Assembly: GCA_026770025.1 (NCBI GenBank)
Contig: JAMXDE010000016.1
Coordinates: 372,001-436,000, forward strand
Length of the DNA: 64,000 nt
Source: Craspedostauros australis
Taxonomy: Eukaryota; Bacillariophyta; Bacillariophyceae; Mastogloiales; Achnanthaceae
Direction: 5' to 3'
Every line of letters begins with the position of its first letter. The stretch's first letter is position 1. The position numbers and the translations under genes were made by a program. The notes under the pieces were generated by a model. The model ran no database searches. It saw only the letters and a list, made by a program, of their open reading frames with translations, and was not told where the DNA came from. Shown piece by piece: positions 41,672 through 62,022 of this stretch.

Positions 41672-44425
41672 ATGATCCACACCAAGGCAGCCTTCGTCAC
41701 CTTTCTCGCTCTCGCCAACACGGCAACGGTCCACGCCGTGCTCCGCGGCAACAGGACTCCTGTGGATCCAACCGAGGAACTCCACACGATGATGATGAAG
41801 ACCCGCATCCTCAAGGCCGGCGACACAACGACCAACAAGGGCAACAAGAACAACCAAGTGCCACCCACTGAAAACCCGGCTGGCGCAGAAACAACCGCGC
41901 CAACCGCGTTGCCTACTGGGCCGCCGACAGGCTTGATTTCGGAGATGCCCTCTATGACGCCTGTCGCTCAGCCAACTGCTTTGCCGACCTCTCAACCGAC
42001 TCTCCTGCCAACATCCGAGCCAACAGCGCCTCCATCCGGCTTTGATTCCACCATCGAGGTCATTTGCAAGCCGGATGGCAAAACTGCCATCACAACAGAA
42101 GAGAGAAGCGCCAAGACCATCATCTGCGATGCTAACAAGCCATCCTGCCGCGAAGCCATCACCGCCGTCAAAGAATCCGAGCAGCTGCAGAACTTCTTCG
42201 CATGCGCAGGAGACCTTGGTGAAGGAGCTGCACGCAAGCTCTTCAACCAGTACGCGTCGCATGACGTGCTCGCTGGGCAACTCGCGATGATCACTGCCAC
42301 CAACGCGATCCTCGTCACAGAACGTCCGGACGCAATGGGGGAGACGTGCATGGCCATCGGAATGGCGCAGTCGCCGCCTGTCACCGACCCATGCTGCCAA
42401 GGATCCTCGGGATGCACCTCAGTCACCGGTTCTGCCTCCAACTCTCCTCCATTCATGACCGTCGCGATCACTGCCTGCACCGGTGATAGCGCCTGCAAGG
42501 ACATGGGACCCAATTCCCTCGTCCTCGATTCCTCATGCACTGGTGAGAGTGCATGCGAATTGATGAACGAAAATAAAATCAACCCATCCATCACAGGGGT
42601 CACCTTCGTTGGCGAGATGGCATGCACCACCCCTCAATCTTGCGAGGGAGTGGGACGTCGTTCTCATGGTGATGTCACCATTCAGACCGGAGCATGTGTT
42701 GGATCAGAGGCATGCAATGCAGCTGGACGCCGCGTCGTGCAGAAGGCCCCCATGCGCATCCGCAGCCACATCGACATCGGGGCGAATGCGTGCGTCGGCA
42801 GCAATGCCTGCAAGGATGCCCATTCCACTGTCAACTATGGTACTGGTGGCAAGTCTGCAGGCAGCTTGACCATTGGTGCTGGTGGTTGCGCTGCTGATGG
42901 GTCGTGCGAGAAGATGGGCTTCAATGACCTAATGAAGACGGACATCATCGTTCCTCCTGGTGGATGCGGCAGCGTCGAAGGCTGCAGGGGATGCATGACG
43001 AAGACGGAGTGCAGCCCTGATGAATTCTACTTCATCAGCGATGTCGATGGGGCCTGTCCAAAGGGAGACAGCAGCTCCGGGGGCAATCCTACTGGTGACA
43101 AAGTGGATGAGTACTGCATTGGCAAGGACACTTTGCCCACAGACTGTCCGACGTTCTTTCCCACCCCATTTCCCACTGTGTCGGCTGAACCCACGCCCGT
43201 TCCAACCAGCATGCCTTCCGATGAGCCGTCTCAATTTCCCTCTGGCCTGCCGTCCAATCAGCCATCTACTCTACCGTCCGCACTCCCATCCGCACTCCCA
43301 TCCACCCTGCCATCTGACATGCCATCATCAAAATCGCAGCCTTCGCAAGAGCCTACAAGAACAAGCAGCCCAACTCTCACCCCAGCATCCTTCACAGTAG
43401 GATGTCTCTCAACACCGGGTGATGGCACGTCAATGTTCAATAGGGTCACTGGTGACGTATTGTGCGATGGTGCAACAGGCACATGCGCAACCTTTGTCAA
43501 TGCGGTTGATGCTCTGACTGATGAGGGGAAGCGCCAGATGGTCAAGAGCATCTTTGGATGCAATGATGCAGACACTCCGCAGCCCGTGACGTTGCAGGTG
43601 GCGCAGAAACGCTTTGATAAGATCAAGAACGACGAAAGTGTGACCAACGCATTGTTGGCAATCGCGAAGGAAGACACGAAGCTCTTCACTGGTAGCGCAT
43701 CTGCGGTGACGAATGCGTGCAGTGATGACTGTTGCAGTGGTAATAATGCTTGCACCATTGAACCTGTTGATGGCAGTGTCATGACGGTGAGCTCAGGATC
43801 ATGTACTGGAAATATTGCATGCATATTCGCACGCCCCAATGCAATCATACTTGACAGTTGCAAGGGCCTTGGTGCCTGCTTCCGGTTGGGCAATTTCGAC
43901 CCAGATCAGCCAGCTGCCGGTGTCGAAGTCGGGTCCAGGGTGATCGGACCAAAAGCTTGTGTCGAGCGACAGAGTTGCAACCATCTTGGAGCGAATATCT
44001 TTGGCAATATACGACTGGAAGAAGGAGCATGCAATGAACCCGAGGCATGCAATCGCATTGCAAACCGCGCAAGCCAAGGATCTACACCCACGACACTAAT
44101 CGTGACAAGCGTCTTCGTCGGAGAGAAGGCCTGCACAGGGGAGTTTGCTTGTAGGGACTTGCATGCAGAAAATCCGTCGGCCAAATTTACAGGAAACGTG
44201 ATCATCGAAGACGGTGCCTGCTCGGGTGCGAGCACGTGCAATGGTCTTGGCACCAGTGGCAGTGCAACCAATGACATCATCATCAGAGCAGGAGTGTGTA
44301 CGACAGAAATCACCTGCAACGGTTGCGCCCGAGAACCATTGTGTGCGTCACCTACCGAGACGTATGTAATCGACGACGCCACAGACTGCCCTGGACCATC
44401 CCCATCTGCCTGTGAAGAACTCTAA
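41672..44425 (+). CDS. Secreted Cys-rich repeat protein with Pro/Thr/Ser linkers
   Basis: The protein is 917 residues. A signal peptide (KAAFVTFLALANTATVHA) is followed by a Pro/Thr-rich linker with PTxxPTS-type repeats (ALPTSQPTLLPTSEPTAPPS, about residues 70-125). Two homologous modules follow, about 125-465 and 575-915, separated by a second Pro/Ser linker (MPSDEPSQFPSGLPSNQPST). Each module has a helical start and then many short units of the form C-x-G-x-x-A-C (SCTGESACELM, ACVGSEACNAAG, ACVGSNACKDA, ACSGASTCNGLG). Each ends alike (VEGCRGCMTKTECSPDEFYF and ITCNGCAREPLCASPTETYV). The periodic Cys/Gly units suggest a disulfide-stabilised repeat fold, possibly a solenoid. It is probably a cell-wall or extracellular protein; no enzyme motif is visible. 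The two modules arose by internal duplication. Confidence 0.8.
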   Translation: MIHTKAAFVTFLALANTATVHAVLRGNRTPVDPTEELHTMMMKTRILKAGDTTTNKGNKNNQVPPTENPAGAETTAPTALPTGPPTGLISEMPSMTPVAQPTALPTSQPTLLPTSEPTAPPSGFDSTIEVICKPDGKTAITTEERSAKTIICDANKPSCREAITAVKESEQLQNFFACAGDLGEGAARKLFNQYASHDVLAGQLAMITATNAILVTERPDAMGETCMAIGMAQSPPVTDPCCQGSSGCTSVTGSASNSPPFMTVAITACTGDSACKDMGPNSLVLDSSCTGESACELMNENKINPSITGVTFVGEMACTTPQSCEGVGRRSHGDVTIQTGACVGSEACNAAGRRVVQKAPMRIRSHIDIGANACVGSNACKDAHSTVNYGTGGKSAGSLTIGAGGCAADGSCEKMGFNDLMKTDIIVPPGGCGSVEGCRGCMTKTECSPDEFYFISDVDGACPKGDSSSGGNPTGDKVDEYCIGKDTLPTDCPTFFPTPFPTVSAEPTPVPTSMPSDEPSQFPSGLPSNQPSTLPSALPSALPSTLPSDMPSSKSQPSQEPTRTSSPTLTPASFTVGCLSTPGDGTSMFNRVTGDVLCDGATGTCATFVNAVDALTDEGKRQMVKSIFGCNDADTPQPVTLQVAQKRFDKIKNDESVTNALLAIAKEDTKLFTGSASAVTNACSDDCCSGNNACTIEPVDGSVMTVSSGSCTGNIACIFARPNAIILDSCKGLGACFRLGNFDPDQPAAGVEVGSRVIGPKACVERQSCNHLGANIFGNIRLEEGACNEPEACNRIANRASQGSTPTTLIVTSVFVGEKACTGEFACRDLHAENPSAKFTGNVIIEDGACSGASTCNGLGTSGSATNDIIIRAGVCTTEITCNGCAREPLCASPTETYVIDDATDCPGPSPSACEEL

Positions 44426-45633
44426 GAGCCCCTCGAACGAGTCGATCGACACTTTGAAATGAACAGTCTAATACCCGTATGAGTGACCGATGGTGCAGTC
44501 GCGCCTAGTCGTGAATCAGATTATCGTAAAATTTAAAATGGCATATAAAAACAAATCTAGACCACCGTACGATCTTATCCATATAAAAATGGTCTTCATC
44601 CGACCTTTGCTTCAAAAGTTATACGCCCTTATCTACCACGCACATCGCCGTGTTATTTCCCCTAGTGAATGTTCCGTGCTTTTGGGGCACGTTCCCAGCG
44701 AAGGCCTGTTCTCAACCGGTTGATGAACCGTTTGTTGTTGAGACTTAAGCAGGAAACTGAAGAGAGAGGATCGATGTGAACTGGTATTAATTTGAATAGG
44801 TTGTAAATTACTATCGAAGGGATTATGGTGGGAACTTGTTCAGCTGGAGAAGTCATAGAAAAGTAAACGTGCAAAGCCATGGGATAAGGCGCCTTTTGGT
44901 AAGACCAAACAAAGCAGCTCCTTCTCTTGTAGATGCACTTGATGCATATCTTCTCTATGGAAGTCTGGTCGGAATCTTCTGATTCAGAACAAGGAAGAGC
45001 CTCTCTGTTCTTGTGTGGCCTGCAATCTGATTGGTTGTATTGGCAGGTAACAGAAGGAAGTAATGCACTTGCAGATGGAGGATTGATTGTGTCAGAGCAG
45101 ATGATGATGGGCAAGACGCAAGATCGAATTGTCATGAATGCTCAATTGGTGTCTGATCTTGCACCTTGTCTGGATTCACTATCCATTGTGTCCTTGTTGT
45201 GCGTTTCATGCAAATCAGTGAGTCCTGGTGTCGTATGAGCAATTCAATTTGTTCTCATGAGGACCCACGTGATCTGACTTGGAGCTCCAATACGATTTTG
45301 GAACTAGCGTGTCCCAACTCGTCTCATCTTTTCTTCATCGTGTTTGGAGCAATTCCGACGATGACGCAGGTCGCTGATGGCGGATGTTCGGTGTTGGCGC
45401 GCATGTTTGCAACAGTGCGGAAGATGTGGCGGCTGCACTGTACGAGTACGAGTGGATGACGTTCGATCAAGTTCCAAAGAATCATCGGCAGAATCGCAAC
45501 AACAAGAAGAGGAAGGCCATTATCACTGCCAACGTCATTCTCTCATTCACTCATTCTCTATCTGTTATCTATCCATCCATCTCTCCCCCAGGGACCACAC
45601 ATTCTCGTCGCAACGAAAGAAAGACCATCAATC
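44426..45633. promoter_or_regulatory. Intergenic region upstream of the overlapping plastid gene pair
   Basis: These 1.2 kb have no recognisable gene. TGACGT at 45457-45462 and ACGTCA at 45532-45537 lie 100-180 bases before the first start codon. A frame open from 45384 through both genes is in the register of the second protein and carries no homologous-looking sequence before it. Confidence 0.4.
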
Positions 45634-46005
45634 ATGCAATGTCGACTGAATTTGATGCTTGTCGTGGCTGCCTCGATCTTGGTGATCGCTGCGCAGCGCA
45701 CGACAGCGTTCACCCCCATCGCAGGTGCGGCACGGTCGATCACGGCGCTGCATGCCGAGGAGACGACCGTCGAGGTGTGCAGCTTCAAAGATTGCAAGCG
45801 CGCGGGTGGAGGCCCGCGCCTTCTCAAGCTGATCAACGAGGTCATCGACGAGAAGGATCTCGCGGCGCAATTCAAGGTCACGGACTGCGAATGCCAAGGC
45901 GAATGCGGCTACGGACCCAACGCCGTGATCAACGGAAAGATCGTCAACAGGATCAAGGGACGCGAGGCCGTGGAATCGGCGCTCGGCATCGTCGACGAAT
46001 CGTAA
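45634..46005 (+). CDS. Plastid-targeted thioredoxin-like 2Fe-2S ferredoxin-type protein
   Basis: The protein is 123 residues. A signal peptide (LMLVVAASILVIAAQRTTA) ends at Phe26 (TAFTPIAG), followed by a short Arg/Ser transit region, so it should enter the plastid. The mature domain of about 80 residues is a thioredoxin-like 2Fe-2S ferredoxin: VEVCSFKDCKRAGGGPRLL, then TDCECQGECGYGPNAVINGK. Cys49, Cys54, Cys85, Cys87 and Cys91 are candidate cluster ligands. The Cys spacing (CX4C and CXCX3C) differs from the classical C-x(10-12)-C plus C-x3-C pattern, though such variants are common in algal members. The partner is unknown. Its TAA shares its last base with the ATG of the next frame. Confidence 0.8.
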   Translation: MQCRLNLMLVVAASILVIAAQRTTAFTPIAGAARSITALHAEETTVEVCSFKDCKRAGGGPRLLKLINEVIDEKDLAAQFKVTDCECQGECGYGPNAVINGKIVNRIKGREAVESALGIVDES

Positions 46006-46619
46006 TGCGCAAGTCGTCGCGGCCCGCCGCAATGGTGTTGGTGATTGTTGCCTTCGTCATGGTGGTACTGTCGGCTCCTTTTGATCTGCTGCAGATGCAG
46101 GCGTCGGTGGTTGACGCATTTGTGGCGAAGCCGATGTCGCCGACACGCTTCGCGTTGCGCAACGGGATCAGTAGAAGGATACAGTCAGCGACGTCATCAT
46201 CATCATCACCACACATCATTAGAGGAAGCCGTACGCGCGGCATCAAACGGACATTTCCGATTCGTGGCAAAGCGTTGCTGGCTGCCAATTCTGATTTCTC
46301 GGAGGAAGACTTCCCGCCCGCTGGCGAGCACATCAACGATCTATCATGGCGCGTCAACAAGCTACGTTTGGAGGAAGAGAATAAGAAGCGCTTTCTGAAG
46401 GCCAAGCCTCGATTCTTGCCGTATGACGAGTGTCGCAAATGGGTGCAAGCAATTGGGAGGTGGAAGACCGAGGAGGATTGGACGGATTGGATCGCGATGG
46501 GCGAGAAGCGCAATGCTTACATTCCATCGTGTCCGGATCAATACTATGGAGGACGAGGCGAGTGGATATCGTGGGAGCACTTTCTTGGGACGCAGCCATC
46601 GAACGATAGCAATACCTGA
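46005..46619 (+). CDS. Plastid-targeted protein with one integrase-repeat-like unit
   Basis: The protein is 204 residues, starting at the ATG inside TAATG; a second ATG lies nine codons on. The hydrophobic signal (VLVIVAFVMVVLSA) and the junction DAFVAKP (Phe39), then a Ser/Arg-rich region to about residue 90, indicate complex-plastid targeting. The C-terminal 60 residues (LPYDECRKWVQAIGRWKTEE, then IPSCPDQYYGG and EWISWEHFLGT) match a short repeat often seen in algae, oomycetes and large DNA viruses. That repeat is called the phage-integrase repeat unit and reads roughly LPFxEAR...W...IP..PD..Y...W.SW..WLG. Its function is unknown. No integrase catalytic domain is present. Confidence 0.7.
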   Translation: MRKSSRPAAMVLVIVAFVMVVLSAPFDLLQMQASVVDAFVAKPMSPTRFALRNGISRRIQSATSSSSSPHIIRGSRTRGIKRTFPIRGKALLAANSDFSEEDFPPAGEHINDLSWRVNKLRLEEENKKRFLKAKPRFLPYDECRKWVQAIGRWKTEEDWTDWIAMGEKRNAYIPSCPDQYYGGRGEWISWEHFLGTQPSNDSNT

Positions 46620-47345: not shown

Positions 47346-47738
47346 CTAGTTGGAAGCCTTCATCTTGGCCTTCTTCGCCTTGACTTGGCGACGCAATTCT
47401 TCCAGCTCCTCTTGCTTCTCCGCTGCCTGCACTCGTTTCTGGAACTTGGCCGGCTGGTAGTACAGAACGATGAGGTATCGTCCACCGACGTTGAAGCCGC
47501 TGAGATGATCTACGGCAGCCTTGGCGTCGTAAATGTCCTCGTAGACAACAAATGCCGTTCCCTTCGTGTCCTTGTCCTTGTCGCCCAATCGTATCTGAAA
47601 GACAGCGCCGTACTTGCCGAATATCGTGTACAGCTCTTCTGTTGTGATCTTGAACGGGAGGTTGCGCACGAAGAGAATGCGGTTCACCTCCGGTGGCAAC
47701 CGCGAGGTTGAGTTCTTTTTCGAGTCATTGTTTGACAT
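47346..47738 (-). CDS. SF3B6: Splicing factor 3B subunit 6 (SF3b14a/p14)
   Basis: The protein is 130 residues from the chosen ATG at 47738 (MSNNDSKKNSTSRLPPEVNR). The frame is open 19 codons further, but the family begins just before RLPPEVNRILFVRNLPFKIT. It is one RRM with RNP2 (ILFVRNLPF) and RNP1 (KGTAFVVYED). The family-specific stretches IYDAKAAVDHLSGFNVGGRY and LIVLYYQPAKFQKR follow, and then a basic coiled-coil tail. In the U2 snRNP, p14 sits at the branch-site adenosine and binds SF3B1. The gene is intronless and its identity is clear. Confidence 0.95.
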   Translation of the reverse strand: MSNNDSKKNSTSRLPPEVNRILFVRNLPFKITTEELYTIFGKYGAVFQIRLGDKDKDTKGTAFVVYEDIYDAKAAVDHLSGFNVGGRYLIVLYYQPAKFQKRVQAAEKQEELEELRRQVKAKKAKMKASN

Positions 47739-60046: not shown

Positions 60047-62022
60047 TCACTGTTGATACATGTTGCTGTTGGTGTTCATGGACTGGCTCAACTTCGCAAT
60101 GCTCTCGCTGGACTGCAGCTCCATGGATAGCTTCAGATCCTTCGTCACCAGCTTGTCCTCCACCGCCTCGAAGCGGCTCACGCGCACCGACACCATGTCA
60201 CCCGGCTTGTATCCTTCCAGCGCCTGGAACAGATCCGCCTCCGCGTTGATCACCTTGTCACCCACCATCGTGATGATGTCGCCGATCTCAATTAATCCTG
60301 TTTCGGTACGCCGGGTTCCCTTCATGCCAGCGCGCGACGCCGCGCTATTGGGGGGAACGTCCAGTACCAGCACGCCGCGGTTGATGCCCAGCGCGCGAGC
60401 CTGCTTCGATTCCAAGTAGCTGATACCGAGGATGGGGCGCACGATCTTGCCGTCACGAATGAGCAAGGTGGCGATGTACTTGACCGTGTCGGATGGTATG
60501 GCGAAACCGATCCCCGAGCTGCCACCGGAAGGTGAAAAGATGGCAGTGTTCATGCCGATGAAGTTGCCGGATGAATCGAGCAGAGGGCCGCCGGAGTTGC
60601 CTGGGTTGATCGCGGCATCGGTCTGAATGACGTTGTTGATGGGCCGCCCGATGGGGCTGCGGACCTCGCGCCCAATTCCGCTGATGATGCCGGAGGTGAG
60701 GGTGTGATCCAGTCCGAAGGGGTTGCCGATCGCCATGACGTTCTGCCCGACACGCAGCCCATTCGATGAGCCGATGGGGATGGGGACGATTTCTGCCTCG
60801 TTGGGCACGTCGATCTTGAGCACCGCGATGTCCTTGCCGGGGTCTACACCTACCACTCTGGCCTTGTATACCGTGCGGCGGTAGTTTGCATTGATGTTGT
60901 CGTTCGGTTTGGCGGATGTATACGGGATGATGCCATCGTTGGGTTTCGTGGTTGGCTCGAACACATCGATGGGCGTGTTGGTGACATCTGGATCTGAAGT
61001 CGCGTCGGTTGGTTCGACGTTTGATGATGGCGATGGCTGTGCTCGAGGGGGGACAGTGACTGCGTATTTCCCCGTCGTCGGCGTGATCAATGCAACCTGT
61101 GCAAAGTTGGCATTGCGCACAACGTGATAGTTGGTGACTACCAGAACAGGAGATATGTGATACATTGGAACGAACAACCATGGTTGTTCGATAGATCGAT
61201 GGATTAGGCAAGAGACATGAGGTGTAGGTGCCAACGTTAGTACGAGTACAGGTGTCAATAGGTAGGCATGGCAGAAAATGTGAGCAAAAACAGACAGACA
61301 AAAATGAAAACGAAAACATTGGTGAGAGGAAGGATTCATGGGCACGTGTACTTTGTTTTTTCTCATTCATTGACCCTTCCGACACCTTCAGTTGACTCAC
61401 CAATGTGACCATCATCATCCCACACGAAACCAGAACCAGACCCCAATGGGATTTCCATCAGGTTGGTTGAGAATGCATCTTGCTTTTGAGTGAAGGTATC
61501 AATGAACACGACGGAACGTGCCGTGCGTTCAAATATGTCGATGCGACGTGCCTCCGAATCTTCCAGCACGACCGTGTTTTCATTGCGTTCACCGAAGGCT
61601 GACGACTGGCGAACGCCCAGCAACGCAGATGAGACCATGCCAAGTGATGACGCGATAATTCCACGTCGTCTGTTGTCGATGATGGAATCGATGTCCGATG
61701 GATCCTCATTTTGGATGTGCCTGCGAGCGTCACGCGAGAATGCCGACGATTTGGCGCCAATTCCCAAACTGTAGATGGGTTTCTGAACGTGGTTGCCTCC
61801 CACGATTCTGGGACCATTCTCTGCCCTGCTGGTATTGGCACCATCGCCTTTCTGCGCTTTCAGGGGATCCACGCGTTTGCTCGGCGCGAGGAATGGCACT
61901 CTGGGATACTCAAAGGCAGTGACGCCATTGTTGCTGCCGCTGCTGCTGGAACAAGCTTGAAGCACGGCAATTGCCGCGGCGCAGCCAAGTGCCGTCGCGA
62001 TCTTCACGCCGATGGTCTTCAT
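60047..62022 (-). CDS. DEG1: Deg1-like serine protease of the thylakoid lumen, two exons
   Basis: Exon 1 is 62022-61401 and exon 2 is 61137-60047. The GT-AG intron at 61400-61138 (263 bases) splits a Val codon in DDDGHI-VTNYHVV, giving 570 residues. The HtrA/Deg triad is His212 (NYHVV), Asp310 (GKDIAVLKID) and Ser389 (NPGNSGGPLL). One PDZ domain follows (GVLVLDVPPNSAASRAGMKG). The best match I know is plant Deg1, which degrades damaged photosystem II proteins in the lumen. Targeting looks tripartite: ER signal (IATALGCAAAIAVLQA), plastid junction VTAFEYP at Phe37, then a twin-arginine lumen signal (RRRGIIASSLGMVSSALLGV, 118-137). A Pro/Thr-rich insertion of about 60 residues (237-296) lies between the catalytic His and Asp. 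The start follows a GA run; longer starts would read it as an Arg-Glu repeat. Confidence 0.92.

What the first reader, a model, noticed from the sequence alone, without database searches (positions are those of the whole stretch)
45634..46619. Two plastid-targeted proteins encoded by frames overlapping in TAATG
The TAA of the 2Fe-2S thioredoxin-like protein and the ATG of the next protein share one base (46005). Both frames carry a complete signal and Phe junction and both end in a recognisable domain. The second gene has no room for its own promoter outside the first coding region. This looks like a dicistronic mRNA with termination-reinitiation, which is rare in eukaryotes. Alternatively a nested promoter makes two transcripts. 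It could be a co-translated pair with linked plastid function.
Basis: partly seen in the sequence, partly recalled or inferred. Interest (0 to 1): 0.75.

Follow-up and report, generated by a model that had tools for sequence, protein, structure and literature searches.

The report
Overlapping diatom plastid-protein gene pair
Two diatom genes for chloroplast proteins overlap by one base, related records keep the same two genes side by side in a shifted reading frame, and one of these records is a single messenger RNA, which points to a nuclear two-protein message of a kind that is unusual in eukaryotes.

Summary
ORF1 (45634-46005, thioredoxin-like [2Fe-2S] ferredoxin) ends in TAA, whose last A starts ORF2 (46005-46619, a conserved diatom family without a Pfam domain). 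Both have a signal peptide and an A|F junction. Stop/start overlap alone is cheap (26 among 526 long ORFs in 264 kb); conservation carries the weight. In 28 of 159 ORF2 homologues examined (18 by score, 10 by motif and eye) the protein record runs upstream into ORF1 read in the -1 frame. None showed the +1 frame, which is rarely open and so hardly visible. P0142 is an MMETSP transcript, so there both ORFs lie on one RNA. A conserved nuclear dicistron is well supported; the proposed mechanism only partly. Eighteen of the 28 lack an AUG between ORF1's end and ORF2's signal-peptide core, though the plastid junction is kept, so UAAUG is not the conserved signal; those ORF2s seem to start inside ORF1 or at a non-AUG codon. 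In the window ORF2's frame is open across all of ORF1 (4% of synonymous shuffles) with three AUGs there, one 5 nt after ORF1's start. Reinitiation, leaky scanning and starts inside ORF1 remain open. No relative's DNA and no RNA of this organism was read.

The parts
45634..46005 (+). ORF1, 123 aa: signal peptide, TTA|F junction, thioredoxin-like [2Fe-2S] ferredoxin with four invariant Cys (C49, C54, C87, C91)
   Evidence: one match in the genome
46003..46007 (+). TAATG: ORF1 stop overlapping ORF2 start by one base
   Evidence: in P0142 the -1 residues allow TAATG or ATGA at the corresponding Met, or a TAG nine codons earlier
46005..46619 (+). ORF2, 204 aa: signal peptide, VDA|F junction, C-terminal helical domain conserved in diatoms
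45384..46619 (+). ORF2 reading frame, open without a stop across the leader and the whole of ORF1
   Evidence: 4.3% of synonymous shuffles of ORF1 keep it open
45639..45641 (+). ATG in ORF2's frame 5 nt after ORF1's ATG, made by the N-terminal Cys codon of ORF1 (CA|A TG|T); G at -3; would give a 326-aa extended ORF2
45891..45893 (+). ATG in ORF2's frame inside the Fe-S Cys codons of ORF1; C at -3
45903..45905 (+). ATG in ORF2's frame at the GEC motif of ORF1; C at -3

Best explanation
A conserved nuclear dicistronic gene of diatoms. One promoter and one mRNA carry ORF1 (plastid [2Fe-2S] Trx-like ferredoxin) and ORF2 (plastid protein of unknown biochemistry) in the -1 frame. In this organism the 204-aa ORF2 protein starts at AUG 46005, because of the available AUGs that one puts the signal peptide at the N-terminus. 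My first choice for how ribosomes get there is coupled termination-reinitiation: some ribosomes that end at the ORF1 UAA restart at the overlapping AUG. In relatives without that AUG they would restart at a near-cognate codon or a nearby upstream -1 AUG. Shown: the overlap, the -1 adjacency in other records, both ORFs on one transcript in one relative. Inferred: that this organism makes that mRNA, that ORF2 is translated from it, and the restart mechanism. I give the dicistron itself about 0.85 and reinitiation as the main route about 0.45.
For: Exact decoding of ORF1 from the -1 translation upstream of ORF2: 18 relatives score 51.6-92.7 bits against a maximum of 32.4 in 805 shuffles and 23.4 for the +1 frame. 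Ten more carry the Fe-S signature plus an ORF1-like tail read by eye. P0142 is an MMETSP transcript with ORF1(-1)+ORF2; its Met at the junction overlaps an allowed ORF1 stop as TAATG or ATGA. Linked loci lie on both sides of the midpoint root of a 58-row ORF2 tree (rows chosen by me, many forks unresolved). Two same-source contig-length coincidences above 1.5 kb (P0007/P0051, P0026/P0115) against 0.07 expected (36 of 40 and 108 of 120 listed records). In 28 of 29 linked rows, the window included, the hydrophobic core is followed by a small residue plus F/W/Y/L (by eye; P0142 unclear), the diatom plastid junction (PMC4329603, passages). In P0166, P0078, P0055, P0065, P0194 and P0156 the core begins at most eight codons after the first allowed ORF1 stop, which fits a restart near termination. 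UAAUG is the influenza B reinitiation site (PMC3035654, passages).
Against: 18 of 28 linked relatives have no Met between ORF1's end and the h-region. One or two junction AUGs among 28 is about what chance would give (my estimate), so UAAUG is not shown to be selected. No UGGGA in the 151 nt upstream. A 123-codon ORF1 is long for reinitiation, and green-algal bicistrons appear to use leaky scanning. Linkage is inferred from protein records only and only open frames are visible: 4.3% of synonymous shuffles of the window's ORF1 keep the -1 frame open but 0.025% the +1 frame, so the exclusive -1 relation may be partly a matter of visibility. No transcript of this organism was seen.
Confidence: 0.5

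Rival explanations
1. Same dicistronic mRNA, but ORF2 is reached by leaky scanning. Ribosomes that miss ORF1's AUG start either at -1 AUGs inside ORF1, giving N-extended ORF2, or at 46005.
For: The mechanism supported by in vivo tests in green algae, where some loci even have overlapping stop and start codons (PMC11291117 passages; PMC11892635 sections 8 and 13). Of the five AUGs between the two starts, three (45639, 45891, 45903) are in ORF2's open frame, one is in ORF1's frame and only one is in the third frame (26 codons; 1 seen against 2.4 expected). The four after 45639 have T or C at -3, and 46005 has G.
Against: ORF1's AUG has A at -3, not an obviously weak context, and 45639 has G at -3. 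Out-of-frame AUGs in ORF1 as a whole are not depleted: 4 observed, 3.95 expected from synonymous shuffles. Products started upstream would bury the signal peptide.
Confidence: 0.3
2. A nested promoter inside ORF1 makes a separate capped ORF2 mRNA; the pair is merely compact.
For: Not excluded by any search. Two paralogues of ORF2 elsewhere in this genome, away from the single ORF1 match, have Met before the hydrophobic stretch, so the family can be expressed from a gene of its own.
Against: P0142 shows both ORFs on one transcript. In loci without a Met between ORF1's end and the signal-peptide core, a nested transcript would still need a start codon inside ORF1 or a non-AUG start.
Confidence: 0.12
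3. Chance overlap of two neighbouring genes, or an annotation or assembly artefact.
For: Stop/start overlaps between long ORFs are common by chance (26 among 526 ORFs).
Against: Pairing in the -1 frame in 28 of 159 homologues, 18 of them decoded far above shuffles. Both frames have homologue-supported proteins.
Confidence: 0.03
4. A single polyprotein: -1 frameshifting near ORF1's end fuses the two, and signal peptidase cuts at the internal signal peptide.
For: Would explain the -1 relation and the missing AUGs.
Against: No XXXYYYZ slippery heptamer in ORF1 of the window; relatives could not be tested. The window and P0142 have a well placed AUG.
Confidence: 0.05

Closest known systems
Green-algal nuclear bicistronic loci (Chlamydomonas, Auxenochlorella; Duenas et al. 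2025, PMC11892635)
   Same: Two ORFs on one nuclear mRNA; short or, in some loci, overlapping inter-ORF region
   Different: Here a diatom pair, seen only in the -1 frame, without overall AUG depletion in ORF1 and without a junction AUG in many relatives; leaky scanning not shown
Influenza B M1/BM2 UAAUG termination-reinitiation and calicivirus TURBS (PMC3035654)
   Same: The same UAAUG pentanucleotide at the junction
   Different: Cellular gene; no UGGGA motif upstream; AUG not conserved among relatives
Human mRNAs with overlapping ORFs and coupled reinitiation (PMC3923131, abstract)
   Same: Cellular mRNAs with a second overlapping ORF; one case there depends on an aspartate-rich C-terminus of ORF1, and many ORF1s here also end in acidic residues (untested lead)
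   Different: Here the second ORF is a conserved protein with its own plastid-targeting signal

Membership tests
PF01257 thioredoxin-like [2Fe-2S] ferredoxin (ORF1) | Pfam score above the gathering cut-off | tested here: met
   25.5 against 24.8 bits
PF01257 thioredoxin-like [2Fe-2S] ferredoxin (ORF1) | four cluster cysteines (C-x4-C ... C-x3-C; pattern recalled) | tested here: met
   C49, C54, C87, C91 invariant in the 20 aligned sequences
Phage-integrase repeat unit PF14882 (recalled resemblance of ORF2) | Pfam match | tested here: not met
   not among the 14 families matched by any of 22 members at E<=10 (HMMER's filters drop most matches above 0.1)
Nuclear bicistronic gene (green-algal type) | both ORFs on one transcript | tested here: inconclusive
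   met in relative P0142 (MMETSP transcript); no RNA of this organism available
Nuclear bicistronic gene (green-algal type) | conserved colinearity of the two ORFs | tested here: met
   28 of 159 examined homologues, from protein records
Nuclear bicistronic gene (green-algal type) | AUG depletion before ORF2 | tested here: not met
   4 out-of-frame AUGs in ORF1 against 3.95 expected (1 against 2.4 in the third frame, 3 against 1.5 in ORF2's frame)
Nuclear bicistronic gene (green-algal type) | weak start context of ORF1 | tested here: inconclusive
   A at -3, C at +4; no diatom consensus was computed
UAAUG coupled termination-reinitiation | stop and start overlap or near contact | tested here: met
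UAAUG coupled termination-reinitiation | 18S-complementary motif with core UGGGA upstream | tested here: not met
   none in 151 nt; pairing to the diatom's own 18S could not be tested
UAAUG coupled termination-reinitiation | ORF2 output depends on ORF1 termination | not testable with these tools
   needs a reporter assay
Diatom plastid-targeted protein | signal peptide with F/W/Y/L at +1 | tested here: met
   both ORFs by hydropathy and motif; SignalP/ASAFind not run

The most novel reading that the evidence does not exclude
An ancient, diatom-wide overlapping gene pair in which ORF2 needs no AUG of its own. It is started in the -1 frame inside ORF1, from AUGs created by ORF1's own cysteine codons (the N-terminal Cys, or the Fe-S cysteines), or at non-AUG codons by reinitiation. 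The ferredoxin's coding sequence would then double as the start region of its partner.
Probability: 0.3. Interest if true: 0.82.

Novelty: new variant of a known kind. Interest (0 to 1): 0.62.

Why it matters
Nuclear dicistrons are documented in green algae. A pair whose second start codon is missing in many relatives while its signal peptide and plastid junction persist would be a natural test of how eukaryotic ribosomes reach a second ORF. It would also tie the supply of a plastid [2Fe-2S] protein to an uncharacterised, conserved partner.

Tried and rejected
The genome has no held relatives.

Frameshifting: no slippery heptamer in ORF1 of the window. An intron between ORF1's stop and the signal-peptide core is unlikely in P0166, P0078, P0055, P0065, P0194 and P0156, where at most eight codons separate the core from the first allowed stop. 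The stop itself is only inferred, and later stops are allowed. 'VS' at the stop of P0161 and P0168 could be a GTRAGY donor, so introns are not excluded there.

Dual coding of all of ORF1 as a general rule: rejected. By eye from the records, 4 of 28 linked relatives (P0055, P0142, P0161, P0162) are open back to ORF1's N-terminal region or beyond; the others begin inside ORF1, or, in P0156, run through what looks like an intron.

Rows left out: 3 homologues too short to examine (P0072, P0088, P0089); six rows without a recognised core were cut at a fixed distance. P0175 (MMETSP, 40.1 bits) beat the shuffles but its decoding lacks GYGPN, so it is not counted. The ten signature-only relatives score 20.0-37.6, seven of them below the shuffle maximum of 32.4, and rest on signature and tail by eye. 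Of four contig-length coincidences, the two below 1.5 kb (expected 0.61) were discounted (a few very long contigs were not entered).

Full report
Observation. ORF1 runs from 45634 to the TAA at 46003-46005 and ORF2 from the ATG at 46005 to the TGA at 46617-46619. ORF1 is a PF01257 thioredoxin-like [2Fe-2S] ferredoxin with one match in this 74.8 Mb, 90-contig genome. ORF2 has two distant paralogues elsewhere in the genome whose frames have a Met before a hydrophobic stretch. The names or name stems shown for ORF2 homologues are diatoms as far as I recognise them: Seminavis, Epithemia, Nitzschia, Chaetoceros, Cylindrotheca, Pseudo-nitzschia, Asterionellopsis, Minutocellus, Amphora (120 of 159 and 120 of 205 rows listed).

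Chance. Among 526 ORFs of 100 aa or more in 264 kb of this genome (window plus 20 sampled stretches of 10 kb), 26 stop/start overlaps with another such ORF occur. The overlap itself is therefore weak evidence; the homologues decide.

Conserved adjacency. Some ORF2 homologues have long N-terminal extensions that contain ORF1 read in the -1 frame: CQGECGYGPN appears as, for example, LSRRMWLWTQ. A pattern search over the first 120 listed proteins found nine with the -1 signature and none with the +1 signature. I then decoded each upstream region exactly: for every position, the best ORF1 residues (profile of ORF1 homologues) whose codons would give the observed -1 residues. Of 162 relatives retrieved could be examined. 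Eighteen score 51.6-92.7 bits; 805 shuffled upstream regions reach at most 32.4 and the +1 frame at most 23.4. Ten more (P0157, P0164, P0176, P0178, P0184, P0188, P0189, P0198, P0200, P0202) have the signature and an ORF1-like tail with an insert between them; seven of these score below the shuffle maximum and all rest on reading by eye. P0175 scored 40.1 but is not counted because its decoding lacks the motif. Linked loci lie in both halves of a 58-row ORF2 tree (few columns, midpoint root, rows chosen by me). Two further pairs, P0007/P0051 and P0026/P0115, share source and contig length above 1.5 kb against 0.07 expected.

Visibility. A linkage shows only if ORF2's frame stays open into ORF1. 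On the window's ORF1, 4.3% of synonymous shuffles keep the whole -1 frame open and 0.025% the +1 frame. The absence of +1 loci is therefore weaker than it looks, and the share of linked loci is unknown.

One RNA. P0142 comes from MMETSP, a transcriptome collection ('Transcript_3460', four member sequences). Its 330 residues run through ORF1(-1) into ORF2. If ORF1 keeps the residue after ALG, the first stops its -1 residues allow are TAATG or ATGA at the Met that opens ORF2's signal peptide; otherwise a TAG nine codons earlier is possible. So at least one relative carries both ORFs on one transcript, most simply with an overlap like the window's. P0143 (L-M) allows TAATG or TGATG, among other stops.

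Start codon. Eighteen of the 28 linked relatives have no Met between ORF1's end and the hydrophobic core of ORF2's signal peptide; ten have one. P0161 has Met only at residues 1 and 50 of 339. Yet in 28 of 29 linked rows (window included; P0142 unclear) the core is followed by a small residue and F, W, Y or L (by eye), the junction rule used for diatom plastid proteins (PMC4329603, passages read). In P0166, P0078, P0055, P0065, P0194 and P0156 at most eight codons separate the core from the first allowed ORF1 stop, which leaves little room for an intron with a start exon. These ORF2s seem to begin inside ORF1 or at a non-AUG codon, unless the records mislead. The count is biased towards the missing AUG: such loci can be seen only as extended records, while loci with an AUG are seen here only if the frame is open upstream.

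The window's own AUGs. No AUG lies at 45457-45633. Between the two starts there are five: 45639 (ORF2 frame, G at -3), 45655 (ORF1 frame), 45752 (third frame, 26 codons), 45891 and 45903 (ORF2 frame). ORF1's AUG has A and ORF2's AUG G at -3. The AUG at 45639 is made by the Cys codon at ORF1 position 3. A Cys (Trp in P0038) two to four residues after a Met near the start is found in 24 of 40 ORF1 homologues (P0012's match is internal and not counted). Several of the other 16 look short at the N-terminus, but P0009 and P0034 lack it. The -1 frames of P0055, P0161 and P0162 fit best to a start at that codon, over 6, 4 and 3 residues. This is suggestive only, and P0142 does not fit it.

Mechanism. 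Green-algal bicistrons appear to use leaky scanning, with weak ORF1 contexts and few AUGs before ORF2 (PMC11892635, abstract and sections 8 and 13 read; preprint PMC11291117, passages, also notes overlapping stop and start codons in some loci). Here AUGs are not depleted overall (4 observed out of frame, 3.95 expected), though the third frame has 1 against 2.4, and ORF1's context is not obviously weak. Influenza B uses UAAUG with an upstream 18S-complementary motif (PMC3035654, passages); the UGGGA core described there is absent here, but the close apposition of ORF2's signal peptide to ORF1's stop fits reinitiation. A yeast strain selected for bicistronic expression reinitiates without a cis-element even when the ORFs abut (PMC11952965, passages), and five of the human transcripts tested in PMC3923131 appeared to depend on termination-reinitiation (abstract). 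I rank coupled reinitiation first (about 0.45), leaky scanning or starts inside ORF1 second (about 0.3), a nested promoter third (0.12). The dicistron itself I put at about 0.85.

Function. ORF1's two profile matches among solved structures are hydrogenase subunits. ORF2's core is predicted as a small helical domain with block-mean pLDDT of 90 or more over residues 121-200. A shared plastid role is inference from the pairing alone.

Limits. No DNA of a relative and no RNA of this organism could be read. The 28 relatives are mostly unnamed records, not counted species.

Noticed in passing
window 61366-62022 (- strand): Another same-strand overlap (ATGA): a 219-aa ORF with hydrophobic N-terminus (2.6) runs into a 439-aa ORF (2.1); may be an intron or chance.
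   Followed up: no
window 45456 and 45384: Upstream ATGs before ORF1 are also in ORF2's frame, which is open for 411 codons; P0142's first Met likewise does not fit ORF1's N-terminal Cys and may lie before ORF1's start.
   Followed up: partly
window 47346-47738 (- strand): Convergent neighbour: small RRM protein (PF00076); looks like SF3b p14 by recall.
   Followed up: no
window 41672-44425: Upstream neighbour: 917-aa Cys-rich protein with weak PT-repeat and DUF7640 matches below their cut-offs.
   Followed up: no
P0156, P0173, P0039, P0040: Records that look, by eye, like an intron in the middle of ORF1; the window's ORF1 has none.
   Followed up: no
P0157, P0164, P0176, P0178, P0184, P0188, P0189, P0198, P0200, P0202: A group whose ORF1 appears to carry an insert after GYGPN; their ORF2 records break off or change after AYIPV, as at an intron (by eye).
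   Followed up: partly
ORF1 homologues P0001-P0040: Cys (Trp in P0038) near the N-terminus in 24 of 40 ORF1 homologues; TG is kept even where Cys is not, which may preserve an ATG in the -1 frame.
   Followed up: partly
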